64,000 nucleotides of DNA from Solirubrobacter soli DSM 22325 (lineage in GTDB: Bacteria; Actinomycetota; Thermoleophilia; Solirubrobacterales; Solirubrobacteraceae). The translations under genes were made by a program, and so were the position numbers. This document shows, in pieces, positions 20,539-49,664 of this stretch. Numbering within the stretch: position 1 is the first letter of the stretch; each line of letters opens with the position of its first letter. The DNA lies in the NCBI RefSeq assembly GCF_000423665.1, contig NZ_AUIK01000021.1, forward strand, positions 124,001-188,000. Direction: 5' to 3'. The notes beneath the pieces were generated by a model. The model was given only the letters and a program-made list of their open reading frames with translations, was not told the origin of the DNA and searched no databases.

Positions 20539-21399
20539 ATGGTTCGCGGCGTGATCGTCGCGGCGGTGGCCGACAGCGTTCGCGAGTTGGCCGTCGGCGT
20601 CGGCGGTGTCGAACTCCGCGGCGTGCACGACCGCCTCGACGACGTCGAGTTCCTCGCCCCCGAGTGGGGCGACGTGCCCGACCTGGCGTCGATGCCGGCG
20701 TTGCGCGTCGTGCAGATCCTGTCGGCGGGAAGTGACTGGATCGAGCCGTCGCTCCCGCCGGGCGTCGTGCTGTGCAACGCCCGCGGGACCCGCGACATCC
20801 CGGTCGCCGAGTGGGTCGTGGGCGCGATCCTCGGCGCCGCGACCGGCTTGTTGGAGGGCGCTCGCCGGGTTGTCTGGGAGCACCGTGTTCCGGCGGAGGT
20901 GTCCGGATCGCGGATCGTGATCGTCGGGTTCGGGTCGATCGGGCTCGCCGCGGCCTCGCGACTCTCCGCACTCGGCGCGACGGTGGTCGGCGTGGGCCGG
21001 TCGCGACTCGGTGAGTTGTCGCGCCTGGTGGCGGACGCGGATGTCGTCGTCGACCTCGTGCCTCTGACCGACGCGAGCCGCGGCATGTTCGACGCCACCG
21101 TGTTCGGGGCGATGCGCGACGGCGCGTTGTTCGTCAACGCGGGTCGCGGAGGCACGGTCGACCAGGACGCGCTGCTCGCCGAGCTCCCGCGCCTGCGCGC
21201 CGTCCTCGACGTGACCGACCCCGAGCCGCTGCCCACCGGCCATCCGCTGTGGACCGCTCCCGGCGTGCTCTCGATCACCAGCCACCAGGCGGGCGACAGC
21301 TTCGAGGCCGACACGCGCGCAGCGCAATTCGCCGTCGACCAGCTGCGCGCGTACGTGGCGGGCTCGCCGCTGCGCAACGTTGTTCCCCTTTTGTCCTAG
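20539..21399 (+). CDS. D-2-hydroxyacid dehydrogenase family protein
   Basis: 286 residues from ATG 20539. NAD-binding domain SGSRIVIVGFGSIGLAAASRL, DLVPLTDASRGMFDATVF, FVNAGRGGTVDQDALLAEL, LDVTDPEPLP and a C-terminal His-containing ITSHQAG motif are those of D-isomer 2-hydroxyacid dehydrogenases. A GTG at 20551 is an alternative start. It is shorter than PGDH-type enzymes and lacks a regulatory domain. It is the first gene of the metabolic island; its upstream CAATCTCT-ATG arrangement resembles that of the Gfo/Idh gene at 37419. Confidence 0.87.
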   Translation: MVRGVIVAAVADSVRELAVGVGGVELRGVHDRLDDVEFLAPEWGDVPDLASMPALRVVQILSAGSDWIEPSLPPGVVLCNARGTRDIPVAEWVVGAILGAATGLLEGARRVVWEHRVPAEVSGSRIVIVGFGSIGLAAASRLSALGATVVGVGRSRLGELSRLVADADVVVDLVPLTDASRGMFDATVFGAMRDGALFVNAGRGGTVDQDALLAELPRLRAVLDVTDPEPLPTGHPLWTAPGVLSITSHQAGDSFEADTRAAQFAVDQLRAYVAGSPLRNVVPLLS

Positions 21400-21412
21400 G
21401 ACAAAGTAGAAT
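21390..21412 (+). promoter_or_regulatory. MocR operator and leaderless promoter
   Basis: A perfect 16-bp palindrome TTTGTCCTAGGACAAA (21390-21405) overlaps the stop codon of the upstream gene. It is followed by a -10-like TAGAAT (21407-21412) eight bases before the ATG of the MocR-type gene, so transcription probably begins at or next to the start codon. Position and symmetry suggest autoregulation by the MocR protein. Confidence 0.65.
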
Positions 21413-21420
21413 CGTCGCCG

Positions 21421-25207: not shown

Positions 25208-25217
25208 GTGATTGAAT
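25207..25217 (+). promoter_or_regulatory. Island operator, half-palindrome plus -10
   Basis: AGTGATTGAAT, the same as the left eleven bases of the perfect palindrome at 48328. It lies just after the MFS stop and six bases before the GTG of the IolE-like gene. TTGAAT is positioned as a -10 for a leaderless transcript. Confidence 0.6.
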
Positions 25218-25223
25218 GTCTCC

Positions 25224-26072
25224 GTGATCGAACTCGCCGGAGGACCGGTCTCCTGGGGCGTCGACTTCGCCGACGCCCCCGGCAACCCGCCGTACACCGT
25301 GGTGCTCGACGCGCTGGCCGCGGTCGGCCTGCGCTGGATGGAGCTCGGCCCGGTCGGCTACCTGCCGGGCGATGCCCTCGCGTCCCGCGGGTTGGGCGCC
25401 GTCGGGACGTTCGTCTTCGACGACTTCCACGCGGGCGCGCCGTCGGACGAGGTTCTGGCCGCGACCGACGCCGCCCTCGACGCGATCACCGCGACCGGCG
25501 GCTCCCTGCTGGTCCTGATCGACCGCCCCAGCGCCGCCCGTGCCGCCGTCGCCGGGCGCTCTCCTGCGGCGCCGCGACTCGACGACGTTGCGTGGACGAG
25601 CATGCTGGAGCTGTTCGTGGCCGCCGCCGACCGCGCCGCCGCACGCGGCGTCCGCGCGGTCGTGCACCCCCACGCCGGCGGGTACCTCGAGTTCGAGGAC
25701 GAGATCTCGCGACTGCTCGCCGACACGTCCCTCGACCTCTGCCTGGACACCGGCCACGCCCTCTACGCGGGCAGCGACCCCCTCGAATTGCTGCACCGCC
25801 ACGCCGACCGCATCCGCCACCTCCACCTCAAGGACGTCGCCGCCCCGGTCCGCGCCCGCGGCCTCGGCTTCTGGGACGCCGTCGCCGCCGGCATCTTCTG
25901 CCCGGTCGGCGAAGGCCTCCTCGACCTCCCCGGCCTCCGCGACACCTTGTCGGCAACCGGCTACTCCGGCTTCGCCACCATCGAGCAGGACCGCCGCCCC
26001 GACACCGCGGGCGACCCGGCCACCGACCTCGCCCGCAGCGTCACCCGGCTCCGCGAGCTCGGCATCGGCTGA
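25224..26072 (+). CDS. IolE/MocC-like TIM-barrel sugar isomerase/dehydratase
   Basis: 282 residues from GTG 25224, which gives the family-like start MIELAGGPVSWGVDF. Xylose-isomerase-like barrel: AVVHPHAGGYLEFEDEI, DLCLDTGHALYAG, RIRHLHLKDV, FCPVGEGLLDLPGL, YSGFATIEQD; the Glu/Asp/His residues are the usual metal ligands. The closest characterised families are 2-keto-myo-inositol dehydratase (IolE) and rhizopine MocC. A TTG at 25212 in frame is an alternative start inside the operator. With the IolD-like gene nearby it suggests cyclitol chemistry. Confidence 0.82.
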   Translation: MIELAGGPVSWGVDFADAPGNPPYTVVLDALAAVGLRWMELGPVGYLPGDALASRGLGAVGTFVFDDFHAGAPSDEVLAATDAALDAITATGGSLLVLIDRPSAARAAVAGRSPAAPRLDDVAWTSMLELFVAAADRAAARGVRAVVHPHAGGYLEFEDEISRLLADTSLDLCLDTGHALYAGSDPLELLHRHADRIRHLHLKDVAAPVRARGLGFWDAVAAGIFCPVGEGLLDLPGLRDTLSATGYSGFATIEQDRRPDTAGDPATDLARSVTRLRELGIG

Positions 26073-26975: not shown

Positions 26976-28790
26976 TCAGGCGGGTGGGCGTTGGGCCAAG
27001 GTGCGGCGGCGGTCGAGCTCCTGGGTGAGGCGGCGTTGGGTGGATGGGTCGGTTGCGATCTCGGGCACGCCTAGGTCCCAGAAGGCCCCGCTCGGGGGTG
27101 TTTCGCCTGGCACGACCGGGCAGTGGATGACGGTGGTGTCGTCGCCCGTGCGGGCGAGGGTGAGCAGCTCGCGGAGGGTCTCGGTGTCGTCGGCGCGGGT
27201 GCCGCGGCAGCCGAGGGCGGTGGCCAGGGCGGCGTAGTCGACGGGGAGCGGCTCGCCGGAGTCGGACACGAAGCGGTTGCCGACGCTGACGCCGGTGAGG
27301 TCGAGGGCGAGGGCTTCGATTGAGCCGAAGCCGGCGTTGTCGATGACCACGACGGTGATCTTCAGGCGGTGTTGGACGGCTGTGAGCAGCTCGCCGAGGA
27401 CCATCAGGGCGCTGCCGTCGCCCACGACGACGACCACCTCCCCGGCCGGCCCTTCGTGCTGGCGGATGCCAAGACCCGCCGGGACTTCGTGTCCCATGCA
27501 CGAATAGCCGAACTCGAGGTGGGCATGGCCGCCATCTGGCACGTCGTAGAGCTTCAGGAGGTCGCCGGGCGCCCAGCCCGCGGCCGCGACGACCCAATCG
27601 CCCGCGCGGGCGCACGCGTTGATCGTCTCGTAGACCGCGCGGCGATCGAACGTCGCGGCGCGCTCGCCCACGTCGACTCGCCATGACGCCAAGGCGGACA
27701 CGACGTCGGGACGCTCTCCGGGACCGGTCGTCAGGCCACGCCGTAGCGCCTCGAGGGCGAGCCGGGCGTCGGCGACGACCGGGGTCGCGCCGAGCTTGAC
27801 CGCATCCGCCGCGCGCACGTTGATCGAGAGGAAGCGCACCGACGGATGCCGGAACAGCGAGAGCGAGCCGGTCGTGAAGTCCGTCAGCCTCGTCCCCACG
27901 CACACGACGAGGTCGGCGTCCTCGGCGACCTGCCGGGCCGCCGCGGTGCCGTTGACGCCGATGCCGCCGAGGTTCAGCGGACCGCGCGCCATCACGCCCT
28001 TGCCCGCTGACGTCTCGGCCACGGGGATTCCGGCGGCCTCGGCGAATGCCGCCAGCGCCGCCTCAGCCGCCGAGTAGCGCACCCCGCCGCCCGCGATGAT
28101 CAGCGGGCGGCGCGCGCCGGCGAGCAACTCCCGCGCCGCGCCGAGCTCCTCGGCCGCCGGCGGCCGCCGGCTCACCACCCACGTCCGCGGCGCGAAGAAC
28201 GACCCGGGCCAGTCATAGGCCTCGCCGAGCACGTCCTGGTGCAGTGCCACGGTGACCGCCCCCGTCTCCGCCGGATCGAGCAGGACCCGCAGCGCGGCCG
28301 GGAGCGCGGTCAACAGCTGCTCGGGTCGGCTGACGCGGTCGAAGAAGCGACTGAGCGGGCGGAACGCGTCGTTGACCGTGATGTCGCCGACGCCGTCCAG
28401 CTGTTGCAGAACGACGCCCGATCGCCGAGACGCGAAGGTGTCCGCCGGCAGGAGCAGCACCGGGAGCCGGTTGACCGTGGCCGTCGCGGCGCCGGTGAGC
28501 AGGTTCGTCGCACCGGGGCCGATCGACGCCGTGCACGCCTGGAGCTGCACCCCTCGGGCGGCCTTGGCGAAGCCGAGCGCCGCGTGCACCATCGACTGCT
28601 CGTGCTTGGGCTGAAAGAGCGGCAGCTCCCCGCCCTCCTGCGCGAGCGCCTGCCCGAGCCCGAGCACGTTGCCGTGCCCGAAGATCCCCCACATCGCCGG
28701 CACCGCGCGCCGGCGCTCGCCGTCGCGTTCGGACCATTGCGCCTGCAGCCAGCGCACAAGTGCCTGGCCGGTCGTCAGTCGTTCGGTCAC
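26976..28790 (-). CDS. iolD: ThDP-dependent cyclohexanedione hydrolase (IolD-like)
   Basis: 604 residues. Acetolactate-synthase superfamily architecture: N-terminal PYR domain (MWGIFGHGNVLGLGQAL, PLFQPKHEQSMVHAALGFAKA with the activating Glu, ASIGPGATNLLTGAA), central domain, and C-terminal PP domain with the ThDP/Mg motif GDGSALMVLGELLTAVQHRLKITVVVIDNAGFG. The segments WVVAAAGWAPGDLLKLYDV and HLEFGYSCMGHEVPAGLGIRQ resemble IolD, which hydrolyses a cyclohexane-1,2-dione ring in inositol breakdown. GTG start at 28790 overlaps the upstream SDR stop by four bases. It is last in a five-gene operon that starts at 31990. The true substrate may be another cyclitol. Confidence 0.85.
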   Translation of the reverse strand: MTERLTTGQALVRWLQAQWSERDGERRRAVPAMWGIFGHGNVLGLGQALAQEGGELPLFQPKHEQSMVHAALGFAKAARGVQLQACTASIGPGATNLLTGAATATVNRLPVLLLPADTFASRRSGVVLQQLDGVGDITVNDAFRPLSRFFDRVSRPEQLLTALPAALRVLLDPAETGAVTVALHQDVLGEAYDWPGSFFAPRTWVVSRRPPAAEELGAARELLAGARRPLIIAGGGVRYSAAEAALAAFAEAAGIPVAETSAGKGVMARGPLNLGGIGVNGTAAARQVAEDADLVVCVGTRLTDFTTGSLSLFRHPSVRFLSINVRAADAVKLGATPVVADARLALEALRRGLTTGPGERPDVVSALASWRVDVGERAATFDRRAVYETINACARAGDWVVAAAGWAPGDLLKLYDVPDGGHAHLEFGYSCMGHEVPAGLGIRQHEGPAGEVVVVVGDGSALMVLGELLTAVQHRLKITVVVIDNAGFGSIEALALDLTGVSVGNRFVSDSGEPLPVDYAALATALGCRGTRADDTETLRELLTLARTGDDTTVIHCPVVPGETPPSGAFWDLGVPEIATDPSTQRRLTQELDRRRTLAQRPPA

Positions 28791-29563
28791 TGCGCCGTCC
28801 ACCCTCCGTCGATTCGCAGGCTGCATCCCGTCAGCGACCCGGCCGCGGGCGAGGCGGCGAAGACCGCTGCCGCCGCCACCTCGTCGACCGTCGCGAGCCT
28901 CCCGAGTGGAATCCGGCGCACCACGTCGGCGCGGAACCCCGGGTCCGCCAAGAACGGCAGAGTCAGATCCGTGTCGACGAAGGTCGGCGCCAGCGCCACG
29001 ACTCGGACTCCGCGCGGCGCGAGCTCGACCGCCAGCGCACGGGTCATCCCCTCGACCGCGTGCTTGGTCGCGCAGTAGACGCTGCGGCGTGGCGCGCCGA
29101 CGTGACCCATCTGCGACGACAGGAAGACGATCACGCCGCCCGCGCGCATCCGCCGGGTCGCCTCCCGCGCCGCATGCAAACCCGCCCGCACGTTGAGCGC
29201 CCACAGGGCGTCGGCCACATCGAGATCGAGTTGCGCGAGCGGCTGCGGGACGTTGGCGCCCGCCGAGCAGACGAGGACGTCGAGCGCGTCGACGCGCGTG
29301 AACGCCGCCTGCAACTGAGCGACGTCGGCGACGTCGCACGCCAACGCCGTGGCGTCCGCGCCATGGCGCCGCGCCGACCGCGCGACCTCCTCCAGGGCAT
29401 CCAGCGAGCGGGCGACGAGCGTGAGCCGCGCGGCACCCGCGGCCGCGAACGCGACCGCGATCGCCGCGCCGATCCCACGGCTCGCGCCAGTGACGAGCGC
29501 GTGGTAACCGTCGAGGCGGAAGCTCGCGCTCGGCGTACCGACGCAAGTCGCGGGGGCGCTCAT
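28787..29563 (-). CDS. SDR-family oxidoreductase
   Basis: 258 residues. Classical SDR: ALVTGASRGIGAAIA, LVCSAGANVP, VFLSSQMGHVGAPRRSVYCATKHAVEGMTRALAVEL with Ser, Tyr and Lys in place, and a C-terminal LTGCSLRIDGGW. It overlaps the mini-ORF upstream (ATGA) and the iolD-like gene downstream (GTGA), so all are translationally coupled. A role in oxidising a hydroxyl of the imported compound is inferred. Confidence 0.88.
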   Translation of the reverse strand: MSAPATCVGTPSASFRLDGYHALVTGASRGIGAAIAVAFAAAGAARLTLVARSLDALEEVARSARRHGADATALACDVADVAQLQAAFTRVDALDVLVCSAGANVPQPLAQLDLDVADALWALNVRAGLHAAREATRRMRAGGVIVFLSSQMGHVGAPRRSVYCATKHAVEGMTRALAVELAPRGVRVVALAPTFVDTDLTLPFLADPGFRADVVRRIPLGRLATVDEVAAAAVFAASPAAGSLTGCSLRIDGGWTAQ

Positions 29564-31990: not shown

Positions 31991-31996
31991 GAAAGA

Positions 31997-32007
31997 GATC
32001 CAATCAC
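31997..32007 (-). promoter_or_regulatory. Island operator before the hydroxyacid dehydrogenase operon
   Basis: Minus-strand GTGATTGGATC, then six bases (TCTTTC) and the GTG start. TTGGAT is placed as a -10 for a leaderless transcript, exactly as in the copy before 25224. A separate 10-bp palindrome ACAGATCTGT lies at 32030-32039. Confidence 0.6.
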
Positions 32008-32768: not shown

Positions 32769-32774
32769 GCCAGA

Positions 32775-32789
32775 GATATAATCACTCTA
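32775..32789. promoter_or_regulatory. Overlapping divergent leaderless promoters with operator
   Basis: GATATAATCACTCTA. On the plus strand TATAAT (32777-32782) is followed by six bases and ATC of the lactonase gene. On the minus strand GTGATTATATC matches the island motif, with TTATAT as -10 and ATC of the SDR gene seven bases on. The two divergent genes are only 20 bp apart. Confidence 0.6.
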
Positions 32790-34328: not shown

Positions 34329-34337
34329 TGGTCCACA

Positions 34338-34348: not shown

Positions 34349-34366
34349 AGGATCACTCGTACGTCA

Positions 34367-37413: not shown

Positions 37414-37418
37414 TCTGT

Positions 37419-40985: not shown

Positions 40986-41941
40986 GGAGACGTGGATTGG
41001 CGGCCGTGGCCGTCCTGGCCGCCGTGGTCGTCGGCTGTGGCGGGGAGGACGAGCCCGCGGCGCCGGCAGCATCGGCGGCGGCGAAGGCCAAGCCGGTGCG
41101 TGTGGCGGTGGTGATGGCGTCGCTCGGCAATGACTTCTACATCGCGCAGAAGGCCGGGGCCGAGGCGCAGGCCGCGTCGGAGCCGGGAGCGGAGGTCACG
41201 GTCTCGGCCGGGCGGGCGCAGGGGTCGACCGACGACGTCGTCGCCCTGATCGAGAACGCGATCGCCAAGCGCGTCGATGCCATCGCCGTCAACGGCTCCG
41301 ACACCAAGCCGCTGCTCCCGGCGCTGCGACGTGTCATCGACGCGGGCATCCCGCTCGTGCTCTTCGACGCGCCGGCCGAGGAGCTCAACGACAAGCTCGC
41401 GGCGTTCATCGGCACCGACAACCGCGCGGGTGGCGAGGCGGGCGGCGCGTGGCTCAAGCAGAAGCTCCCGGACGGTGGGAAGGTCGGCGTGATCCTGTGC
41501 GTCGCCGGGCATCCGGTCACCACGGCGCGGCTCGACGGCTTCAAGGCGGGCGCGGGACCCGGGTTCTCCTACGTCGCCGAGGCCGATGCGGGCTGCGATC
41601 CCGAGAAGGGCCGCAAGGCGATGGAGGACATGCTCGCGCGCCACCGTGACCTCGACGCGGTGTTCTCGACGAGCGACAGCCAGTCGATCGGCGTCATCAA
41701 GGCGTTGCAGGCGGCCAAGGAGGACCCGGTGGTCGTGTCCTTCGACGCGCAGCCCGCGATCGTCAAGGACATCGAGAGCGGGACGGTCGTGGACGCGTCG
41801 GTCGCGTGGTCGGCGCACGAGCTGGGGGCAGACGCCGTCAAGGCCGCGGTTGCCGCCGCGCGCAAGCAGGCGGTCGAGAAGACGACGCTCGTCCCGGTCA
41901 CGGTCGTCAGCGCCGACAACGCCGCGAGTTGGAAGGGCTAG
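40982..41941 (+). CDS. Sugar-binding lipoprotein (RbsB-like)
   Basis: 319 residues. Lipoprotein signal with lipobox VVVGC (Cys19), then a periplasmic-binding-protein type 1 fold: VRVAVVMASLGNDFYIAQKAGAEAQA, NAIAKRVDAIAVNGSDTKPLLPALRRVIDAGIPLVLFDAPA, FIGTDNRAGGEAGGAWL, FSTSDSQSIGVIKALQAA, VSFDAQPAIVKDIESGTV. Binds the substrate outside the membrane and hands it to the RbsC-like permease. The closest class handles ribose, inositol or similar pyranoses and cyclitols. Confidence 0.92.
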   Translation: MRRRGLAAVAVLAAVVVGCGGEDEPAAPAASAAAKAKPVRVAVVMASLGNDFYIAQKAGAEAQAASEPGAEVTVSAGRAQGSTDDVVALIENAIAKRVDAIAVNGSDTKPLLPALRRVIDAGIPLVLFDAPAEELNDKLAAFIGTDNRAGGEAGGAWLKQKLPDGGKVGVILCVAGHPVTTARLDGFKAGAGPGFSYVAEADAGCDPEKGRKAMEDMLARHRDLDAVFSTSDSQSIGVIKALQAAKEDPVVVSFDAQPAIVKDIESGTVVDASVAWSAHELGADAVKAAVAAARKQAVEKTTLVPVTVVSADNAASWKG

Positions 41942-42948
41942 TCTCCCGAGAGGTCTCCCCGGGGGATCGCGGGCGTGCGTTCGGCAGCGCCTGTGCGGAG
42001 GCGGTCGCGCGCACCGTCGGGGTGTACCGGCGGCTCTTCGCCGACGCTGCCGGGCTGTGTCGTGACGAGGTGTTGCGGCTCGGTGAGCAGGTCGGCATCG
42101 CGGTGTCCGCGGGGTGGCCGGAGCTCGTGGACGAGATCGAAGGTCTCGCCGCGGGCGCCGGCCACGATCCCCGCGAGCTGCTGGCGATCAACGCTCGCAC
42201 CGAGTTGCTCGCGGGGACGCAGGCGCGGGGTGAGTGCTCGCTGGTGGCTCGTCGCGGGACGTGGCTCGCGCAGACGTGGGATTGGCATCCCGATCTGGCG
42301 GGCGCGGCGATCGCGTGGACGGTCGAGCACGCCGGAGGGCGCTTCACCACCGTCACCGAGGCCGGCGTGCTCGCCAAGCTCGGGTGCAACGACGCGGGTG
42401 TGGCGTGTGGGCTGAACTTCCTCACGTGCTCGGAGGACCGACGGACGGGTGGCATGCCCATCCACCTGTTGCTGCGGCTCGTGCTCGAGCGCTGCGCGTC
42501 TGCCTCGGAGGCGCGGGCGCTGCTGCGTGATGTCCGGACGGCGGCGTCGTCGTGCATCACGGTCGCGGCGGGCGACTCGTTGTTCGCCGCGGAGCTATCT
42601 CCGGGAGGGACGCGGTTCGTCTCGCCAGCGGATGACGGTTGGCTCGTGCACACGAACCACTTCCTGCTACCGCCGGCGTCGGGGAGCGACCCGACGCCGA
42701 GTGTCCACCCCGGCACTTTGGAACGCCGCTCGCGGCTGCTGGAAGCGGCGCGCGACGGACTGGCACCGCCGGATGCGCTGGCGCTGCACGACGGGCGGCT
42801 CGAGTCGGTCTGCCGGCACGACGATGGTGCGGGTCCGTGGCATGAGCGCCGCGCGACGCTGCTCGCGGTGTGGATGGAGCCCGCGCGGCGGTTGCTGCGC
42901 GTGGCGCCTGGGCCACCCTGTTCGACGCCGTTCGAGGTTGTTTGGTGA
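41929..42948 (+). CDS. C45-family N-terminal-nucleophile acyltransferase/amidase
   Basis: 339 residues from a TTG at 41929, overlapping the binding-protein gene by 13 bp; no better start is available before the conserved region. The architecture is that of penicillin acyltransferase-like C45 proteins: an N-terminal propeptide, then GECSLVARRGTWLAQTWDW in which Cys103 would become the N-terminal nucleophile after self-cleavage, then GVLAKLGCNDAGVACGLNFL and VHTNHFLLP. The family cleaves or forms amide bonds of acylated amines. Next to a deacetylase and sugar importer, it may remove an acyl group from an imported N-acyl compound. Confidence 0.78.
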   Translation: MEGLVSREVSPGDRGRAFGSACAEAVARTVGVYRRLFADAAGLCRDEVLRLGEQVGIAVSAGWPELVDEIEGLAAGAGHDPRELLAINARTELLAGTQARGECSLVARRGTWLAQTWDWHPDLAGAAIAWTVEHAGGRFTTVTEAGVLAKLGCNDAGVACGLNFLTCSEDRRTGGMPIHLLLRLVLERCASASEARALLRDVRTAASSCITVAAGDSLFAAELSPGGTRFVSPADDGWLVHTNHFLLPPASGSDPTPSVHPGTLERRSRLLEAARDGLAPPDALALHDGRLESVCRHDDGAGPWHERRATLLAVWMEPARRLLRVAPGPPCSTPFEVVW

Positions 42949-43703
42949 CCAGCCTCGCGATCACGGTCGACGTGGACGGCGAGGCCGGGCTGCCGGACGG
43001 CGGGCGCGCGTACGCCGACCGTCTCTCCAGCCGCTCCGAGCGCACGTACGGGGTGCTGCGGGGGCTTCCGCGGATCCTGGGACTGTTGGATGCGTATGGC
43101 GTCGTGGCCACCTTCTATGTGCCAGGGCTCACCGCCTTGCGGCATCCCGAGGCGATCCATGCCATCGCGTCAGGCGGTCACGAGCTCGGCCACCACGGGC
43201 ACACGCACCGCCGTCCCGACACATTGAGCCCGGCCGAGCAGCGCGAGGAGATCCTGCGCGGTGTGGCGGCGCTGTCGAACCTCGCGGCCCGGCCGCGCGG
43301 CTATCGCGCGCCCGGGTGGGAACTGACACCGGTGACGGTCGCGCTGCTCGCCGAGCACGGCTTCGAGTACGACTCCAGCCTGATGGGCGACGACCGGCCG
43401 TACACCGCCGGCCCGCTGGTCGAGCTGCCGGTGCACTGGAGCCTCGACGACGCGCCGTACTTCGAGGCGTCGCCCGCCGGCAGCGGACTCTGGGACGTGT
43501 GGCGGCGCGAGCTCGAGCTCGCAGCGGACGAGCGGCGTGCGATCACGTTGACCCTGCACCCCGAGATCCTCGGTCGACCGCACCGTGCCGACATCCTCCG
43601 CCGCGTGCTCGACCTCGCCCGCGAGCTCGGGTTCGAGGCCGTCACCCACGGCGCGCTCGCCGCCGAGACTATTCGACGCCGGACAGCAGCTCAGGCAAAG
43701 TGA
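42945..43703 (+). CDS. NodB-type polysaccharide deacetylase family protein, paralogue A
   Basis: 252 residues, no signal peptide, so cytoplasmic. Motifs: LAITVDVDGEAGLPDGG (motif 1, Asp-Asp), GGHELGHHGHTHRRP (His metal ligands), RGYRAPGWELTP, SSLMGDDRPY, LTLHPEILGRPHR. About 60 percent identical by eye to the gene at 45588. Cytoplasmic members act on N-acetyl or amide groups of small molecules. GTG overlaps the C45 stop by four bases; the 3' end overlaps the convergent XRE gene by 35 bp. Confidence 0.87.
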   Translation: MTSLAITVDVDGEAGLPDGGRAYADRLSSRSERTYGVLRGLPRILGLLDAYGVVATFYVPGLTALRHPEAIHAIASGGHELGHHGHTHRRPDTLSPAEQREEILRGVAALSNLAARPRGYRAPGWELTPVTVALLAEHGFEYDSSLMGDDRPYTAGPLVELPVHWSLDDAPYFEASPAGSGLWDVWRRELELAADERRAITLTLHPEILGRPHRADILRRVLDLARELGFEAVTHGALAAETIRRRTAAQAK

Positions 43704-43989: not shown

Positions 43990-45591
43990 TCACGCAGCCC
44001 GGAAGAGTCGTGTCGGGACGACACCGGCGAAGGCGACCGCGGCGGTCACGAACACCGCGGCCGGCGCGCCGTGAGCGGCAGCGATCGACGTCGCCGCCAA
44101 CGACCCGACGCCGCCGCCCACGTACTGCGCCGCGATCAGCAGCGCCGCGGAGCGGGCGGCCGGGCCCGTGGTGAGCGCCGCGGCCGCCGCGCCGGCGTTG
44201 GCCGCGACGTGACCGGCGCCGAAGCAGGCGATGGCCGCCGCGAGCACGACCGATGGGCTCTCGGTCGCGAGCGCGAGGCCGACCGCGGCGAGCGCGAGGC
44301 CCTGCATCGCGATGCCGGCCGAAGCGCCGGCCTGCGGTCCCGCCCGCGCCACGATCCGCCGTGCCACCCACGCCCCGGGAACGACGCCGAGCCCGAACAC
44401 GACGAGCAGCGAGGGCGGGAGCCCCTCGGCGGCGAGCGCGGCACCGAGGACGACCGTCGCCCCTACGCCCGTGGCGGTCGTGGCCGCGCCGACGCCACAC
44501 GCCGCACCGAGCGCCGCCCCACACCGAGCGCGCCGGACGAACACGACGAACGCCACGCCGGCGCCGACGGCCAGCACGGTGGCGGGCCACCTGGCGGCCG
44601 CGAGGGCGCCGGCGACGAGGACGATCGCGGCGGTGAGCGCGACGCCGCCGCGAGGTGGCGCGGCGAGCGGCGCGCCGCGCCGCGCGGAGGATGGCGGCGC
44701 GGCGTTGCGCGCCGGCGCGGCCGACGGCGCCGCGAGCGGCGGGGAGGCGGGCGCCGGGGCGCGACGTTGGGGCGCGGCCGGCGGCGCCGAGCGCGGCGCG
44801 GCGTTCCGCGCCGGCACGGCCGGCGGCGCCGAGCGCGGCGCGGCGTTCCGCGCCGGCGCGGCCGGCGGCGCCGAGCGCGGCGCGGCGTTCCGCGCCGGGA
44901 CGGCCGGCGGAGCTGCGAGCGGCGCGGCGTTGCGCGCCGGCACGGCCGGCGGCGCCGCGCGTGGCGCGGCGACCCGCGACACGGTGCGCCGCGGTAGAGA
45001 GGCCGGCGTCGGCGCGGCGGCCGGCCGCGCTGTCGTTCGTTGCGGCGCGGCGGGCCTACTCGGCTCGACGTCGAGCCGGGACGCGAGGACGGCGGTCGCC
45101 AAGGTGAGGACGGCGACCGCCGCGAGGACGAGTCGCCAGTCGGTGACGCCCGCCGCCAGGGTGCCGGTCGCGAAGCCCGCGGCCACGGCGCCGCCCAGCG
45201 CGGCGAAGCCCGCCGCGCGGCCGCGGGTCTCTCCGGCCGACGCCAGCAGGGCCAGGGCCGCGGTTGCCGCCTGCGCGCCGCCGAGGCCGAACACCACGCG
45301 GGCGGTGAGCGTCGTCGCCAGGCCCGTCGAGAGCGCGAGGGTGGCGACGCCCAGGGCGGCGGCCGCGAGGCCGAGCGCGAGTGCGCGCGGCGGGCCGAGC
45401 CGGGCGGTCACCGCCGCGGCCGCCATGACGGCGGCGCCGTACGCGAACGAGGACGCGCTGAAGAGCCACGGGTAGGCGTCCCCGCTGACACCGAGCTCCG
45501 ATGAGATGCGTGGGCCGGCGAGCGCGAGCAGACCGAAGTCGAACGCGCCCAGCGCCGCCGGAACACACGCGCACAGCGCCGCGCGGGTCAC
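43990..45591 (-). CDS. MFS transporter with repeat-rich central loop
   Basis: 533 residues. About six hydrophobic segments (residues 1-185), then a 110-residue Pro/Ala/Arg loop of 14-residue tandem repeats, then about six to eight more hydrophobic segments. The general layout (VTARLGPPRALALG, GLGGAQAATAALALLASAGETRGRAAGFAALGGAVAAG, FGLGVVPGAWVARRIVARAG) fits a 12-14-span MFS exporter. GTG start overlaps the deacetylase B stop by four bases. The repeat loop is presumably cytoplasmic and is highly unusual. Confidence 0.8.
   Translation of the reverse strand: MTRAALCACVPAALGAFDFGLLALAGPRISSELGVSGDAYPWLFSASSFAYGAAVMAAAAVTARLGPPRALALGLAAAALGVATLALSTGLATTLTARVVFGLGGAQAATAALALLASAGETRGRAAGFAALGGAVAAGFATGTLAAGVTDWRLVLAAVAVLTLATAVLASRLDVEPSRPAAPQRTTARPAAAPTPASLPRRTVSRVAAPRAAPPAVPARNAAPLAAPPAVPARNAAPRSAPPAAPARNAAPRSAPPAVPARNAAPRSAPPAAPQRRAPAPASPPLAAPSAAPARNAAPPSSARRGAPLAAPPRGGVALTAAIVLVAGALAAARWPATVLAVGAGVAFVVFVRRARCGAALGAACGVGAATTATGVGATVVLGAALAAEGLPPSLLVVFGLGVVPGAWVARRIVARAGPQAGASAGIAMQGLALAAVGLALATESPSVVLAAAIACFGAGHVAANAGAAAAALTTGPAARSAALLIAAQYVGGGVGSLAATSIAAAHGAPAAVFVTAAVAFAGVVPTRLFRAA
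44760..44970. repeat. 42-bp tandem repeat in MFS central loop
   Basis: Nearly identical 42-bp units with landmarks at 44801, 44843, 44885 and 44927 (exact 42-bp spacing), with degenerate copies on both sides. They encode a 14-residue unit containing ARNAAPRSAPPA. In frame, so the transporter remains open. Confidence 0.9.
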
Positions 45592-46370
45592 GGCGAGGTG
45601 GAGGCGAACGAGTCCGCGGGTAGGGCGGCGGCGACCGTGTCCGCGACTTCGCCGTGCGGGATCGATCGCAGGCCCCTCGAGGCGGCGGCGTCGAGGAGCC
45701 GGCGGAGGACGTCGACGCGGGCGCCGCGGCCGAGGATCTCCGGATGGCAGGTGATCGTGAGGTGGCGGTCCTCGCGCACGGCCAGCGCGAGTTCGTCGAG
45801 CCAGACGGCGAGCAGGCCGGCCTGATCGGTGGTGTGGGCGAAGTGCGGCGCGTCGTCGAGCGCCCAGTGCACCGGCAGCTCGATCAACTGCCGGCCGGCG
45901 GCCTCGACGAAGTACGGACGGTCGTCGCCCATCAGGCTCGAGTCGAACACGAAGCCCGCCTCGCCGAGCGCGTCGAGCGTCGCGCGTGTGAGCTCCCAGC
46001 CCGGTGCGCGGTAGCCGCGAGGCGTGATACCGGTCACGGCCGAGAGCGCGCGGGTGCCGTCGGCGATCTCGCGCCGCTGGGTGACCGCGTCCATCCGGCA
46101 CGGCAGACGGTGCGTGTGGCCGTGGTGCCCGATCTCGTGGCGCGAACCCGCGAGCGCCGCGATGTCGTCCGGGTGGCGCTGCGCGGTCACGCCCACCACG
46201 TAGAACGTCGCGCGCGCCTCGAACTCGTCGAGCGCCCGCAGGATCCGAGGCAGGCCGGCGGTGAGCCCGTAGGTGCGTTCGGACCAGCAGGAGAGCCGTT
46301 GCTCGAAGCCGATGCCACCGCCGGGCAGGCCCGCGGCGCCGTCGACGTCGACGGTGATCGACAGTCCCAT
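45588..46370 (-). CDS. NodB-type polysaccharide deacetylase family protein, paralogue B
   Basis: 260 residues from ATG 46370, which overlaps the GNAT stop by one base (TGATG). Motifs parallel paralogue A: LSITVDVDGAAGLPGGG, SRHEIGHHGHTHRLP, RGYRAPGWELTR, SSLMGDDRPYF, ITCHPEILGRGAR. An upstream ATG at 46397 would add nine residues. No signal peptide. The two copies lie in opposite-strand operons about 2.7 kb apart, each with different partners, suggesting that they handle related substrates. Confidence 0.87.
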   Translation of the reverse strand: MGLSITVDVDGAAGLPGGGIGFEQRLSCWSERTYGLTAGLPRILRALDEFEARATFYVVGVTAQRHPDDIAALAGSRHEIGHHGHTHRLPCRMDAVTQRREIADGTRALSAVTGITPRGYRAPGWELTRATLDALGEAGFVFDSSLMGDDRPYFVEAAGRQLIELPVHWALDDAPHFAHTTDQAGLLAVWLDELALAVREDRHLTITCHPEILGRGARVDVLRRLLDAAASRGLRSIPHGEVADTVAAALPADSFASTSP

Positions 46371-47026
46371 CACGCCCCCTCTCGGAACAGGACCCACGCG
46401 CGGCCGGCGGCGCGGTCGACGGTGACGTCGACACCGACGCCGCCGGCGGCCAGCGCGTCCGTCATCGCGCGCCGCACCTCGCCGCGGCAGCGGTCGCCGG
46501 CGTCACGGTCGAGCGGGATCTCGACCCGGGCTGACGGTGACCCCAGAGCCGGACCTTCAACGAGCGGCCACTCGATCACGACGTCGTCCGCCGCCCCCGG
46601 CCGCACGGCGGCGTAGAGCGCCGGCGCGTACGCGACCAGGCGCGCCCTGAGCCGACCGAGGTAGAGGGCGAGGGCCGGCACCGACAGGGGATCGGCGGTC
46701 CAGCGGATCAACCGCACGCCGGCGGCCCGCGCGCGGTCGCGCTGCAACTGCTTCAGACGGCGGCCGACACCCCGGCCGCGCACGCCCGGGGCGACCGCGA
46801 GGCCACAGGAGAAGAGCGTAGAGGGCTCGCCCGGAAGCGCGAACGAGAAGCCGACGAGGCTGCTGCCGTCGAACGCGCCGAGCGCGAGCCCGCCGTGCGC
46901 GGCGCTCGTCTGGACGAGCCACGGCGGCAACGCGTCGCGCTCTGCGAAGGCGAGCGACCGGGCGAGCAGCGCGCAGCCGTCGGCGAGCTCGGCGCCGCGC
47001 GCGTCGCGGAACTGGATTTCGGACAT
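46370..47026 (-). CDS. GNAT-fold acetyltransferase
   Basis: 218 residues. Acetyl-CoA site FSCGLAVAPGVRGRGVGRRLKQLQRDRARAAG matches GNAT motif A; the preceding GLALGAFDGSSLVGFSFALPG is strand beta 4. The C-terminal part resembles predicted acetyltransferases of the COG3375 type. First gene of the GNAT-deacetylase-MFS operon, so acetylation and deacetylation are encoded side by side. Confidence 0.8.
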   Translation of the reverse strand: MSEIQFRDARGAELADGCALLARSLAFAERDALPPWLVQTSAAHGGLALGAFDGSSLVGFSFALPGEPSTLFSCGLAVAPGVRGRGVGRRLKQLQRDRARAAGVRLIRWTADPLSVPALALYLGRLRARLVAYAPALYAAVRPGAADDVVIEWPLVEGPALGSPSARVEIPLDRDAGDRCRGEVRRAMTDALAAGGVGVDVTVDRAAGRAWVLFREGA

Positions 47027-47159: not shown

Positions 47160-48323
47160 ATGCACAGCGCCGTCATCACCGGTTTCCGCGTCCGCGACGC
47201 GATCGCCATGTCACACGACGACCGCCCGGTCGTCGCCCACGCGACCCGCACCGAGCGCCACTCGATCCACGTCACCCGCGACGCGGCCGGCTCCAGGCGC
47301 TGCCTGGCCGAGCTGCTCGAGCAGGCGCACACGGTCGCCGTGATCTCCGACGAGACCGTCGATGCCCTCTACGGCAACGAGCTCCGCGACGAGCTGCGAG
47401 CGCTCGGCCACGAGGTCCTCATGCACACGGTGCCGGCCGGCGAGGCGAGCAAGTCGCTCGAGTCGGCGGTCGCGCTCTGGAACTGGCTCGCCGGCAGCGG
47501 GCTGGGGCGCCGGGACGTGGTCGTGAGCTTCGGCGGCGGTGTCATCGCCGACCTCGGCGGCTGGGTGGCGAGCGTGTACATGCGCGGCGTGCCGTATGTG
47601 AACGTGCCGACGACGTTGCTGGCGATGGTCGACGGCGCCCTCGGCGGCAAGGTCGCGGTCAACCACCCGGTGGCGAAGAACCTGCTCGGCGCGTTCCAGC
47701 AGCCGGCGGGCGTGATCTCCGACCTGCGCTATCTGCGCTCGCTCGACGCGCGACAGCTCGCCGCCGGGGTCGCGGAGTGCATCAAGAAGGGCGTGATCGC
47801 CTCGCCGGAGTACTTCGCGTTCATCGAGGACGAGGCCGACGCGCTCGTCGCCGGCGACCCCGCCGCGCTCGAACCGCTGGTCCGCTCGGCCGCGACGATC
47901 AAGACGGCGCTGATCGAGCGCGACCCGTACGAGGACGACCTGCGCCGCCCGCTCAACTTCGGACACACGGTCGGCCACCCGCTGGAGACCGTGACCGGGT
48001 ACGCCCCGCTGCTGCACGGCGAGGCGGTCGCGTTCGGGATGGCGGTGGAAGCGCGGATCGCCGCGCGGCGCGGTTGGCTCTCCACCGGCACACGTGACCG
48101 GTTGCTGGCCGTGATCGAGCGCTGTGGGCTGCCGTCCCGCGCGGCCGCGCTCGGAGCCGATGTCACCGCCGACGCGCTGCTCGCCGCGATGGAGAAGGTG
48201 CGCCTGATCCGCGCGGGCAGCCTGCGCTGGGTCCTGCCGGTGGCACTCGGCGAGACCGTCATCGCCGACGACGTCACCGAGGGCGAGATCCGCGGCGCAT
48301 TGGCCGAATGCGACGTCACGTAG
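47160..48323 (+). CDS. Sugar-phosphate cyclase (3-dehydroquinate-synthase-like)
   Basis: 387 residues from ATG 47160; ATG 47208 is a later alternative. NAD-binding VVVSFGGGVIADLGGWVASVYMRGVPYVNVPTTLLAMVDGALGGKVAVNHPVAKNLLGAF and the metal ligands of the family are present: Glu in GVAECIKKG, His in NFGHTVGHPLE, His in LLHGEAVAFG. The superfamily includes AroB and the synthases that make inosose- or valiolone-type rings. Departures from AroB (for example AMVDGALGGKVAVNHP), and location beside an aminotransferase rather than aroC/K/E, argue against housekeeping AroB. The product cannot be assigned from sequence alone. Confidence 0.82.
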   Translation: MHSAVITGFRVRDAIAMSHDDRPVVAHATRTERHSIHVTRDAAGSRRCLAELLEQAHTVAVISDETVDALYGNELRDELRALGHEVLMHTVPAGEASKSLESAVALWNWLAGSGLGRRDVVVSFGGGVIADLGGWVASVYMRGVPYVNVPTTLLAMVDGALGGKVAVNHPVAKNLLGAFQQPAGVISDLRYLRSLDARQLAAGVAECIKKGVIASPEYFAFIEDEADALVAGDPAALEPLVRSAATIKTALIERDPYEDDLRRPLNFGHTVGHPLETVTGYAPLLHGEAVAFGMAVEARIAARRGWLSTGTRDRLLAVIERCGLPSRAAALGADVTADALLAAMEKVRLIRAGSLRWVLPVALGETVIADDVTEGEIRGALAECDVT

Positions 48324-48327
48324 TAGA

Positions 48328-48342
48328 GTGATTGAATCACTT
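48328..48342 (+). promoter_or_regulatory. Perfect 15-bp palindromic island operator
   Basis: AGTGATT-G-AATCACT, a perfect inverted repeat and the most complete copy of the motif found at 25207, 31997, 32775, 34338 and 37288/37405. TAGAGT (48325-48330) could be a -10. The aminotransferase ATG follows with GGAGG at 48353-48357, so this transcript has a leader. Confidence 0.7.
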
Positions 48343-48362
48343 ACTCTCTTTGGAGGTCTCCG

Positions 48363-49664
48363 ATGAACGCGTCCGAAGCCCTGCTCGAGACCGCCGCCGA
48401 GGTGATCCCGGGCGGCGTGAACACGTGTCGCCGGCGCAGTGAGCCGCGACTGTGCTTCCGCCGCGGAGCGGGCGCGTACCTCGAGGACCTCGACGGCAAC
48501 CGCTTCGTCGACTACCACGCCGCGTACGGTGCGATCTTCCTCGGCCACTCGCACCCCGCGGTCACCGAGCGGGTCGCGAATGCCATCAAGGAGACGGTGC
48601 TGTTCGGCGTCGGTGTCACCGAGGCGGAGGTCGCGCTCGCGAGCAAGATCGTCGAGCACGTGCCGTCGATCGAGCAGACCGTCGTCTGCAACAGCGGATC
48701 AGAGGCGACCTACCACGCGATCCGGCTCGCGCGCGGCGTGACCGGTCGGCAGCAGCTGATCAAGTTCCAAGGCTGCTACGACGGGTTTCACGACTATGTG
48801 CTCCGGAATGTGTTGAGCCGCCCCGACCGCGTCGGCCGGCGCGACCCGCATTCGGCGGGCATGCTCGAGGCGGCGATCGATGCCACGCTCGTCTGCCGCT
48901 ACAACGACCTCGACGACGTCCGCCAGACGCTCGAGCGCCACGGCGAGGACGTCGCGGCGATCATCGTCGAGCCGGTCGCCCACAACTCGCCCGGGCTCCT
49001 CCCCCGCCCCGGCTTCCTCGAAGGCCTGCGCGAGCTCTGCGACGCCACCGGCGCGCTTCTCATCTTCGACGAGGTGATCACGGGCTTCCGCCACCACATC
49101 GGCGGCTACCAGGCCATCTGCGGCGTGCATCCGGACCTGACGACGCTCGGGAAGGCGATCGCCAACGGCTTCCCGCTGGCGGCGATCGGCGGCCGGCGGG
49201 AGCACATGGAGCGCTTGAACACCACCGCCGACGGCGACGTCCACTTCGGCGGCACCTACAACGGCAACGCGGCGGCGGTCGAGGCGGGGCTGGCGACGAT
49301 CGAGCAGCTCGAGGACGGCCGCGTCCACGAGCATGTCTTCGCGCTCGGCGAGCGGATGCGCGACGGTCTCACCGAGGTCGCCGCCCGGGTGGGCGTGCCG
49401 GCGACCGTCGGCGGGTTCGGGTCGCTGTTCGTCCTGTGCTTCATGGATGGCCCGCTGGAGACCTATGAGGACGTGCTGCGCAACGACGACGCGCTGTTCG
49501 GGCGCTACCGCCGGGAGCTGATCGAGCGCGGCGTGTTCGAGATGCCGGAGAGCCTGGGCCGCAGCCACATCGGCGCCTCACACACGGCCGCTGACGTCGA
49601 CCGCTCGCTCGAAGCGGCGGAGGACGCGCTGCGCGCCGCGGTGGACGCGCTCGCGCGCCTTTGA
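48363..49664 (+). CDS. Class III PLP aminotransferase (glutamate-1-semialdehyde aminomutase-like)
   Basis: 433 residues. GGVNTCRR, YLEDLDGNRFVDYHAAYGAIFLGHSHP, CNSGSEATYHAIRLARGVTGR, EPVAHNSPGLLPRPGFLEGL, IFDEVITGFRHH, LTTLGKAIANGFPLAAIGGRR with the PLP Lys. It lacks the context of haem genes, so a dedicated amino/keto conversion is more likely than HemL. Strong GGAGG SD. Together with the cyclase it could aminate a cyclic ketone, or in the other direction deaminate an imported amino compound. Confidence 0.88.
   Translation: MNASEALLETAAEVIPGGVNTCRRRSEPRLCFRRGAGAYLEDLDGNRFVDYHAAYGAIFLGHSHPAVTERVANAIKETVLFGVGVTEAEVALASKIVEHVPSIEQTVVCNSGSEATYHAIRLARGVTGRQQLIKFQGCYDGFHDYVLRNVLSRPDRVGRRDPHSAGMLEAAIDATLVCRYNDLDDVRQTLERHGEDVAAIIVEPVAHNSPGLLPRPGFLEGLRELCDATGALLIFDEVITGFRHHIGGYQAICGVHPDLTTLGKAIANGFPLAAIGGRREHMERLNTTADGDVHFGGTYNGNAAAVEAGLATIEQLEDGRVHEHVFALGERMRDGLTEVAARVGVPATVGGFGSLFVLCFMDGPLETYEDVLRNDDALFGRYRRELIERGVFEMPESLGRSHIGASHTAADVDRSLEAAEDALRAAVDALARL

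What the first reader, a model, noticed from the sequence alone, without database searches (positions are those of the whole stretch)
20539..49664. Uncharacterised cyclitol/amino-sugar-type metabolic island
An RbsABC-type importer, IolE-like and IolD-like enzymes, Gfo/Idh, three SDRs, two 2-hydroxyacid dehydrogenases, a HisD-like polyol dehydrogenase, an SMP-30 lactonase, a DHDPS-family aldolase, a C45 acyltransferase, two NodB-type deacetylases, a GNAT enzyme, a sugar-phosphate cyclase and a class III aminotransferase are combined with at least six regulators. This does not match the standard iol operon (no IolB, IolC or IolG-IolA set). It suggests uptake and stepwise deacylation, deamination, oxidation and C-C cleavage of an N-acylated cyclitol or unusual amino sugar, or alternatively synthesis of one.
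Basis: inference. Interest (0 to 1): 0.72.

Follow-up and report, generated by a model that had tools for sequence, protein, structure and literature searches.

The report
IolB-free oxidative cyclitol breakdown island
A soil bacterium related to Solirubrobacter carries a gene island with a shared switch sequence that appears to break open inositol-like ring sugars and finish the job by oxidation instead of the usual phosphate route, and in a few relatives it is joined to enzymes for amino-bearing rings, including an unusual ring-forming enzyme.

Summary
The island is real and mostly co-inherited. Its order from IolE to the class III aminotransferase (window 25.2-49.7 kb) recurs, with a few extra genes, on two contigs of Solirubrobacter phytolaccae; MocR-DHDPS-MFS (21.4-25.2 kb) does not.

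An IolD survey of the order (39 places in 33 of 232 genomes; 35 loci compared) shows two exclusive kinds of locus: 19 with IolB, 11 (window included) with a 2-hydroxyacid dehydrogenase, none with both, 5 with neither. All 11 lie in one IolD clade, which also holds two IolB loci. They carry an HpcH-type aldolase (9 of 11; not the window) and either an HpsN-type "HisD" (7) or an aldehyde dehydrogenase (3), never both.

I infer an oxidative, phosphate-free route after IolD: the open-chain aldehyde acid is oxidised, cleaved by an aldolase, and hydroxypyruvate reduced. A palindrome (GTGATNNNATCAC) lies at four operon boundaries of the island and at matching places in relatives; an FCD-GntR is the likely regulator.

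The amino part (cyclase, aminotransferase, GNAT, NodB, C45) is an accessory in few genomes. The cyclase is a new clade beside AroB, not valiolone-type; its role is open.

The parts
25212..26072 (+). IolE-like TIM-barrel protein (predicted inosose dehydratase)
   Evidence: TIGR04379 122 bits, cut-off 290; matched in S. phytolaccae 69%, G302 59%, G777 53%, G352 44%, G288 40%
26976..28790 (-). IolD, ring-opening TPP hydrolase, of the subfamily linked to 2HADH
   Evidence: TIGR04377 694 bits, cut-off 715; 14-row clade 100/100 holding all 11 2HADH loci
28787..29563 (-). SDR1 dehydrogenase, partner of the HisD/HpsN-type enzyme
   Evidence: Pfam; next to HisD in many relatives
29560..29763 (-). 67-aa frame made of a 33-bp tandem repeat, probably not a real gene
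29760..31040 (-). HpsN-type 'histidinol dehydrogenase' family polyol/aldehyde dehydrogenase
   Evidence: PDB 8v35 413.6 bits against 232.6 for the best true HisD; in 7 of 11 loci of the class
31037..31990 (-). D-2-hydroxyacid dehydrogenase (predicted hydroxypyruvate reductase)
   Evidence: Pfam; best solved matches are phosphoglycerate dehydrogenase and glycerate DH/glyoxylate reductase; defines the 11-locus class
31995..32007 (.). operator-like copy GAGATCCAATCAC just upstream of 2HADH-HisD-SDR1-IolD
   Evidence: same place in S. phytolaccae, G302, G777
32046..32693 (-). SDR2 dehydrogenase; the called start is too short, the conserved N-terminus (TGGTRGIG) reads on to about 32.78 kb without a standard start codon
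   Evidence: Pfam; matched in 6 of 11
32773..32785 (.). operator-like copy GAGATATAATCAC at the SDR2/SMP-30 divergent boundary; overlaps the likely 5' end of SDR2
   Evidence: a site lies between SMP-30 and SDR2 in G302 and G777 too
32873..33607 (+). SMP-30/gluconolactonase (predicted lactonase)
   Evidence: Pfam; in 7 of 11
33609..34328 (-). GntR-FCD regulator a
   Evidence: Pfam
34328..34795 (+). MarR-type regulator
   Evidence: Pfam
34741..35838 (-). ThiF/MoeB-like adenylyltransferase, role unknown
   Evidence: Pfam; 62% in S. phytolaccae
35835..36563 (-). IclR-type regulator
   Evidence: Pfam
36560..37285 (-). GntR-FCD regulator b, candidate regulator of the operator
   Evidence: in 8 of 11; site in 7 of 8 loci with it and 2 of 27 without
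37289..37301 (.). operator-like copy GTGATTCGACCAC in the GntR_b/Gfo divergent gap
   Evidence: matching site in S. phytolaccae
37419..38459 (+). Gfo/Idh/MocA dehydrogenase (IolG-like N-terminus)
38456..39223 (+). SDR3 dehydrogenase
39220..40215 (+). RbsC-type permease
40212..40985 (+). RbsA-type ATPase, single domain
40982..41941 (+). RbsB-like binding lipoprotein; under the cut-off of every named specificity
   Evidence: RbsB 105 of 337; rhizopine SBP 49.5 of 420
41938..42948 (+). C45 acyltransferase/hydrolase
   Evidence: NF040521 219 bits, cut-off 85
42945..43703 (+). NodB-type deacetylase 1; no membrane segment in a hydropathy scan, so probably cytosolic
43990..45591 (-). MFS-like transporter with a GC-rich repeat-expanded loop
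45588..46397 (-). NodB-type deacetylase 2
   Evidence: a NodB next to GNAT also in G004 and G352
46370..47026 (-). GNAT acetyltransferase
   Evidence: 37% homologue beside an MFS gene in G352
47160..48323 (+). dehydroquinate-synthase-like sugar phosphate cyclase of a new clade
   Evidence: TIGR01357 314.7 bits, cut-off 305; 5-member clade 100/99; 6 of 232 genomes of the order
48328..48340 (.). perfect operator-like palindrome GTGATTGAATCAC upstream of AT3
   Evidence: identical in S. phytolaccae; one of only 3 places in the 9.3 Mb genome at <=1 mismatch
48363..49664 (+). class III (glutamate-semialdehyde-aminomutase-like) aminotransferase AT3
   Evidence: TIGR00713 389.9 of 527 while a true HemL exists elsewhere; 62-91% homologues beside the cyclase in G004, G015, G365

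Best explanation
The island is a cyclitol-catabolism regulon in which the ring is dehydrated and opened by IolE/IolD-type enzymes, but the product is then handled by an oxidative, phosphate-free lower pathway instead of IolB-IolC-aldolase-IolA. Predicted order: RbsABC import; entry by Gfo/Idh or SDR oxidation, or by deacylation (C45/NodB) and transamination (AT3) of amino-bearing rings, to an inosose; IolE dehydration to the dione; IolD ring opening to a 5-deoxyglucuronate-like aldehyde acid; oxidation to the aldaric acid by the HpsN-type enzyme (an aldehyde dehydrogenase in other genomes), with SDR plus SMP-30 lactonase as the lactone branch; SDR oxidation to a 2-oxo acid; retro-aldol cleavage by an HpcH-type aldolase (the window lacks it; perhaps the DHDPS-family aldolase or an unlinked gene) to hydroxypyruvate plus malonate semialdehyde; reduction of hydroxypyruvate to glycerate by the 2-hydroxyacid dehydrogenase. 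The operons share a GTGATNNNATCAC palindrome, probably read by GntR_b (36560). Shown by sequence: gene families, co-inheritance, exclusivity with IolB, the IolD subclade, palindrome positions. Inferred: every substrate and reaction, the order of steps, and the regulator-operator pairing.
For: IolD survey of the order at E<=1e-100 (the tool scored 5 candidates per genome): 39 places in 33 of 232 genomes; 35 loci compared, 4 fragments dropped. IolB in 19, 2HADH in 11, both 0, neither 5 (Fisher p=1.0e-5, not corrected for descent). Of the 11: HpcH 9, HpsN-type HisD 7, ALDH (>=65% to that of G046) 3, HisD and ALDH never together, neither in 1; that ALDH fits a lactaldehyde-dehydrogenase model best, 484 bits of a 650 cut-off. 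IolD tree: 14-row clade 100/100 holds all 11; label changes 2 against 9.2 in shuffles, 0 of 500 as low. The genome's three other IolD genes each have an IolB in the fetched stretch. Palindrome: 4 window sites at <=1 mismatch against 0.71 expected (1 of 100 shuffles reached 4), all outside the called genes; nine related stretches 13 sites against 2.6 in Markov shuffles (largest 6 of 20), 11 of 13 outside called genes; five comparison stretches 0; sites before 2HADH in four genomes and between SMP-30 and SDR2 in three.
Against: The window itself lacks the HpcH aldolase, as does the G288 stretch. Two loci of the same IolD clade (G224, G027a) carry IolB and no 2HADH match. An IolE match is present in only 6 of the 11; the TIM-barrel gene beside IolD in G046 fits epimerase models, not IolE. 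The HpcH and ALDH queries were taken from loci of this class. HisD+SDR1 is a common pair in the order without IolD. The motif was first found by eye in window gaps, so its window statistics are not independent; the 32773 site overlaps the likely 5' end of SDR2. G365 has no site at the cut-off; loci differ in length. The lower-pathway chemistry, including hydroxypyruvate-aldolase activity of the HpcH family, is from recall; one paper search for it found none.
Confidence: 0.55

Rival explanations
1. Catabolism specific for an N-acyl aminocyclitol: the importer, C45/NodB deacylation and AT3 transamination are the defining steps and the whole 25-50 kb is one pathway.
For: AT3 carries a perfect palindrome. 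An aminotransferase lies in 5 of 11 class loci: AT3 at >=62% in window, G004, G365; DegT in G025, G352. G365 runs IolD-2HADH-DHQS-VOC-AT3-X-Gfo-SDR-RbsBAC on one strand. Both NodB proteins lack membrane segments in a hydropathy scan.
Against: In 6 of 11 loci no AT3/DegT at comparable identity was seen in the stretch compared (G046 has only a 29% class III match). No binding-protein model reaches its cut-off. C45 was seen in 2 of 35 loci, window and G004; NodB in 3 of 35.
Confidence: 0.3
2. A make-and-eat (rhizopine-like) island: cyclase + aminotransferase + GNAT + NodB + MFS build and export an N-acetyl aminocyclitol, and the regulon re-imports and degrades it.
For: Cyclase next to or near an aminotransferase gene in 5 of the 6 genomes of the order that have it (G799's copy is split into two frames with none seen); GNAT and NodB near it in window, G004, G352; the cyclase's own upstream gap has no site while AT3 does. 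S. meliloti L5-30 carries both rhizopine synthesis and catabolism genes (PMC6668481, passages).
Against: In G365 the cyclase sits inside the catabolic operon. No glycosyl, nucleotidyl or kinase biosynthetic genes appear in the island scans. AT3 is in the catabolic regulon. The MFS gene beside GNAT in G352 resembles the window's other MFS (27%), not the one beside GNAT.
Confidence: 0.2
3. Sulfonate (DHPS/sulfolactate) catabolism recruited next to an iol-like gene: HisD is HpsN, the SDRs are HpsO/P-like, 2HADH is a sulfolactate dehydrogenase (HpsO/P and sulfolactate roles recalled).
For: HisD is nearest to sulfopropanediol dehydrogenase and the HisD-SDR1 pair is common in the order.
Against: The TPP enzyme is IolD-like (694 bits; sulfoacetaldehyde acetyltransferase model 120 of 620). 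No sulfolyase or sulfonate transporter family among the island's matches. HisD is replaced by an ALDH at other IolD loci of the class.
Confidence: 0.07
4. Chance neighbourhood of several unrelated sugar operons, as is common in large soil actinobacterial genomes.
For: MocR-DHDPS (21.4-23.9 kb) has no match in the S. phytolaccae stretches fetched; ThiF was seen in window and G004 only, of 12 loci, C45 in those two only, of 35.
Against: Order kept in S. phytolaccae; core kept in three families; shared palindrome.
Confidence: 0.08

Closest known systems
myo-inositol catabolic (iol) pathway, IolE-IolD steps
   Same: IolE-like and IolD-like enzymes, Gfo/Idh and RbsABC-type importer; IolD belongs to the IolD family tree
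   Different: No IolB or IolC found; HpsN-type HisD or ALDH, HpcH aldolase (not in the window) and 2HADH instead; own FCD-GntR and palindrome
Rhizopine mos/moc loci of Sinorhizobium meliloti L5-30
   Same: RbsB-type binding protein; MocR-type regulator nearby; an aminotransferase; catabolism and possible synthesis together
   Different: Binding protein far under the rhizopine model (49.5 of 420); aminotransferase is class III in the window; MocR/DHDPS/MFS part not conserved; IolD present
HpsN sulfopropanediol 3-dehydrogenase
   Same: Nearest solved relative of the HisD-like protein
   Different: Genomic context is IolD/aldolase, no sulfonate genes seen
3-dehydroquinate synthase (AroB)
   Same: Scores over the AroB cut-off; keeps residues aligned with the metal and carboxylate sites (positions recalled)
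   Different: Separate clade; the DKK motif of the five AroB-side rows is (V/I)R(L/H); the housekeeping AroKB gene is elsewhere
Sedoheptulose-7-phosphate cyclases (valiolone synthases)
   Same: Same superfamily
   Different: The two rows compared lose the K250/R264 equivalents and have D and P at the N268/H275 equivalents; the window does not

Membership tests
Inositol catabolic gene cluster (IolCatGC) | at least three of iolB, iolC, iolD, iolE within 10 kb (definition in PMC9430895, passages) | tested here: not met
   only IolD and an IolE-like gene; no IolB in the window, no PfkB kinase among the Pfam matches of the scanned frames
IolD (TIGR04377) | curated cut-off 715 bits | tested here: not met
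   694.4 bits; yet inside the IolD tree, with IolB-linked G224 and G027a in the same clade
IolE (TIGR04379) | curated cut-off 290 bits | tested here: not met
   121.9 bits
Rhizopine catabolism (moc) | rhizopine binding protein model NF052284, cut-off 420 | tested here: not met
   49.5 bits
Rhizopine catabolism/synthesis | growth on or synthesis of scyllo-inosamine compounds | not testable with these tools
   needs culture work
3-dehydroquinate synthase (AroB) | TIGR01357 cut-off 305 | tested here: met
   314.7 bits
3-dehydroquinate synthase (AroB) | DKK motif shared by the AroB-side rows compared | tested here: not met
   (V/I)R(L/H) in 5 of 5 clade members; DKK in 5 of 5 AroB-side rows
Valiolone-type S7P cyclase | loss of the K250/R264 equivalents, D and P at the N268/H275 equivalents (numbering recalled; seen in the 2 S7P-cyclase rows) | tested here: not met
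   window keeps K, R, N, H
HpsN-type dehydrogenase | closer to HpsN than to histidinol dehydrogenase | tested here: met
   413.6 against 232.6 bits
HpsN sulfonate pathway | sulfolyase or sulfonate transporter in the locus | tested here: not met
   none among the Pfam/NCBIfam matches of the island
Glutamate-1-semialdehyde aminomutase (HemL) | TIGR00713 cut-off 527.3 | tested here: not met
   389.9 bits, though over the broader NF000818 cut-off (406.6 of 398); a true HemL at C15, 554 bits

The most novel reading that the evidence does not exclude
The island belongs to an undescribed branch of ring-sugar metabolism with two new elements: (1) an IolD subfamily whose product is oxidised and aldol-cleaved without any phosphorylation, under its own GntR operator; and (2) a new clade of dehydroquinate-synthase-like cyclases, with an aminotransferase, GNAT and cytosolic NodB deacetylases, that makes (or remodels) an N-acetylated carboxylated aminocyclitol, which the same cells re-import and degrade: a private make-and-eat currency like rhizopines, from a different ring chemistry.
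Probability: 0.17. Interest if true: 0.82.

Novelty: new variant of a known kind. Interest (0 to 1): 0.6.

Why it matters
If right, it gives a testable second lower pathway (hydroxypyruvate plus malonate semialdehyde, no kinase), a regulator-operator pair that delimits it in genomes, and a previously unplaced cyclase clade whose product could be a new aminocyclitol.

Tried and rejected
Rejected: MocR-DHDPS-MFS as part of the system (no MocR or DHDPS match in the S. phytolaccae stretches). A rhizopine identity (binding-protein model far below cut-off). A valiolone-type cyclase. A second 2-hydroxyacid dehydrogenase (none in the frames scanned). An HpcH aldolase in the window after AT3: the frame 49684-50364 has no Pfam match and tblastn of three HpcH relatives finds none in the window. 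A FadR-type pattern TNGT..ACNA: 47 places over the window, no clear tie to the gaps, not tested statistically; the GTGAT..ATCAC motif was seen instead.

Led nowhere: HisD as a genome-contig query gave one Solirubrobacter locus and otherwise distant relatives. AT3 at E<=1e-140 in 396 genomes of the phylum: own genome only. Cyclase in 266 genomes of the phylum: own only. Plasmid search with the cyclase: 115 records, all under 60% identity. Paper searches, seen as listings only: (34 papers, 20 listed; 7; 0; 5; 40, 12 listed) showed no title or abstract start describing an aminocyclitol or IolB-free inositol route; one search matched 39,492 papers and says nothing. They cover only the open-licence library; of the papers found I read passages of PMC9430895, PMC9007349, PMC6668481, PMC9200736 and PMC6741124. 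No structure prediction was run: a DHQS-like fold would not settle the substrate.

Rows dropped: 4 IolD fragments (G791, G028, G380, G793) before the 35-locus counts. In the IolD trees, G001 and G006 are identical. An earlier 19-row IolD tree did not resolve the 14-row clade.
Full report
What is there. The window lies in a 9.3 Mb, 50-contig genome (contamination estimate 8%) of the same genus as G004, which I take to be Solirubrobacter phytolaccae KCTC 29190 because its contig C141 has the length of the named record holding the 82% HisD match. Corrections: one 2-hydroxyacid dehydrogenase, not two; five regulators, not six; the HisD-like protein is HpsN-like; a ThiF-like protein and two MFS proteins were not listed.

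Co-inheritance. tblastn of window proteins finds in S. phytolaccae, on two contigs whose ends break inside the same operon (not joined here), IolE, IolD, SDR1 / HisD, 2HADH, SDR2, SMP-30, GntR_a, MarR, ThiF, IclR, GntR_b, Gfo, SDR3, RbsC, RbsA, RbsB, C45, NodB1, then MFSx, NodB2, GNAT, cyclase and AT3, in window order, with extra genes between 2HADH and SDR2, between ThiF and IclR (a methyltransferase) and between NodB1 and MFSx. MocR and DHDPS have no match in the stretches fetched and the only MFS_DHA2 match (32%) lies about 13 kb away, so the left 4 kb of the finding is probably unrelated. S. phytolaccae has an HpcH-family aldolase directly after AT3; the window has none.

The core and its contrast. 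The genome's three other IolD genes each have an IolB in the fetched stretch. I then took the IolD matches at E<=1e-100 in all 232 held genomes of the order (the tool scored 5 candidates per genome): 39 places in 33 genomes. Four fragments were dropped and 35 loci compared (stretches 4.5-59 kb). IolB occurs in 19, 2HADH in 11 (window, G004, G777, G302, G365, G025, G046, G352, G288, G385a, G314), both in none, neither in five (G331, G009, G794, G003, G253); Fisher p=1.0e-5 (loci are related by descent). In the 11: HpcH 9 (not window, G288); GntR_b 8; HpsN-type HisD 7; SMP-30 7; IolE 6; ALDH at >=65% to that of G046 3 (G046, G385a, G314), never with HisD; neither in G352 (the HpcH and ALDH queries came from loci of this class, the IolB query from the other). 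The ALDH fits a lactaldehyde dehydrogenase model best, under its cut-off. In the IolD tree all 11 fall in a 14-row clade (100/100) with G331 and two IolB loci (G224, G027a); the label needs 2 changes against 9.2 in shuffles, none of 500 as low. An earlier 19-row tree had not resolved this clade.

Why this means an oxidative lower pathway (inference). In the known route 5-deoxyglucuronate is isomerised by IolB, phosphorylated by IolC and cleaved by an aldolase to DHAP and malonate semialdehyde (PMC9007349, PMC9430895 and PMC6741124, passages; the last also notes that S. soli uses myo-inositol and has iolABCDEG). Where IolB is absent here, an aldehyde/alcohol-to-acid oxidase of one of two unrelated kinds takes its place in 10 of 11 loci, with an HpcH aldolase in 9 (its models HpaI and GarL score best but under cut-off) and a 2HADH, in the window of the phosphoglycerate/glycerate dehydrogenase type. 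Oxidation to a 5-deoxy-aldarate, oxidation to a 2-oxo acid, retro-aldol cleavage to hydroxypyruvate plus malonate semialdehyde and reduction to glycerate finds a use for each gene; SMP-30 serves the lactone form. The chemistry is my proposal. IolC and IolA were not looked for in the relatives.

The shared palindrome. Reading the gaps showed a repeated sequence. GTGATTNAATCAC at <=2 mismatches: 5 window matches against 0.37 expected, 0 of 100 shuffles. GTGATNNNATCAC at <=1: 4 against 0.71, 1 of 100 shuffles. All 4 lie outside the genes as called, in 2,689 of about 29,200 bases. One caveat: SDR2 as called lacks its conserved N-terminus, and the frame that holds it (in the window and in S. phytolaccae) reads up to two stop codons at about 32.79 kb with no standard start, so the 32773 site overlaps the likely 5' end of SDR2. 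The motif came from those gaps, so relatives are the fair test: nine stretches of related loci hold 13 sites (Markov-shuffle mean 2.6, largest 6 of 20), 11 of them outside called genes; five comparison stretches hold none. Sites stand before 2HADH in window, G004, G302, G777; between SMP-30 and SDR2 in window, G302, G777; between GntR_b and Gfo in window and G004; before AT3 in both; before HisD in G025 and G288; before GntR_b in G777; between DegT and GntR_b in G025; between GntR_b and IolE in G288; between a GGT-like gene and GntR in G352. Some have no clear target (G302 3480, 16966, 19335; G004 L088 1364) and two lie inside genes (G025 8117, G794 974). Over the 35 loci the site occurs in 7 of 8 with GntR_b (not G365) and 2 of 27 without (G331, G794; Fisher 4e-5), although loci with GntR_b tend to be longer. 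In the whole genome only three places match GTGATTNAATCAC at <=1 mismatch: 48328 and two on contig C8 next to MarR-, methyltransferase- and GntR-like genes.

The amino accessory and the cyclase. The cyclase clade occurs in 6 of 232 genomes of the order, 5 of 399 in the class sample, and only the own genome in 266 of the phylum. It sits beside or near AT3 in window, G004, G015 and G365, and near two DegT aminotransferases in G352. In G799 its gene is split into two frames with a transposase on the same contig. G365 runs IolD-2HADH-cyclase-VOC-AT3-X-Gfo-SDR-RbsBAC on one strand. GNAT and NodB stand near it in window, G004 and G352. The genome's housekeeping AroKB is elsewhere. In a 17-row tree the five full-length members form one clade (100/99) beside the AroB rows (87/86, weak), apart from S7P cyclases, a Nostoc row I label DDGS-like from its neighbours, and EboD. 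By recalled Aspergillus DHQS numbering they keep R130, D146, K152, N162, E194, K197, K250, R264, H271, H275 and H287; N268 is kept in 3 of 5; DKK is replaced by (V/I)R(L/H). I read this as a 2-keto-acid substrate with altered phosphate-end contacts, not sedoheptulose 7-phosphate. Whether it builds a ring for the cell or takes part in breakdown cannot be told. The cyclase's own upstream gap has no site while AT3 does, which favours two programmes; G365 favours one.

Verdict. Missed were the left boundary, the accessory nature of the amino part, the oxidative core shared by 11 loci, and the palindrome. I rate the core as a new variant of inositol-type catabolism; the cyclase is the most open and potentially most novel element.

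Noticed in passing
window 32693-32790; L087 (S. phytolaccae) about 4946-5010: SDR2 has no standard start codon for its conserved N-terminus in either species: the frame reads two stops, then S(D/H)YIS...TGGTRGIG, and the palindrome overlaps these first codons in the window. A non-standard start or leaderless start is possible.
   Followed up: partly
window 29600-29781, 26143-26338, 26667-26971, 44657-45014: Very GC-rich tandem repeats (10-, 20-, 33-, 42- and 126-bp units) sit between operons, make up a 67-aa frame between SDR1 and HisD, and expand a loop inside the MFS protein.
   Followed up: partly
window 34741-35838: ThiF/MoeB-like adenylyltransferase with no sulfur-carrier partner noticed, kept in S. 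phytolaccae (62%) between regulators; S. phytolaccae has a methyltransferase next to it whose homologue in the window is at 52138 (41%).
   Followed up: partly
window 19395-19484: ARAGORN calls a tRNA-Arg on the + strand inside the 1150-aa ThuA-domain frame of the - strand; probably a false call.
   Followed up: no
L118 (G001:C49): Two matches to the window's ThuA-domain protein, 3.8 kb apart, stand beside a HisD-family gene.
   Followed up: no
L138 (Streptomyces sp. NBC_01454 plasmid): A cyclase gene with a TPP enzyme, BadF-type ATPase, inositol monophosphatase and NDP-sugar synthase, probably a cyclitol natural-product cluster; shares the non-DKK motif with the window cyclase.
   Followed up: partly
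L159 (G000:C8:338902 and 341773): Two near-perfect palindrome copies 2.9 kb apart near MarR-, methyltransferase- and GntR-like genes, perhaps a second target of the same or a paralogous regulator.
   Followed up: partly
L154 (G799:C91:28083-29208): Cyclase homologue split into two frames, with a transposase gene on the same contig; reads as a decaying or mis-assembled copy.
   Followed up: partly
G000:C13:49072-50331: A HisD-family match with one stop codon (TAA) inside, about 75 kb upstream of the window on the same contig.
   Followed up: no
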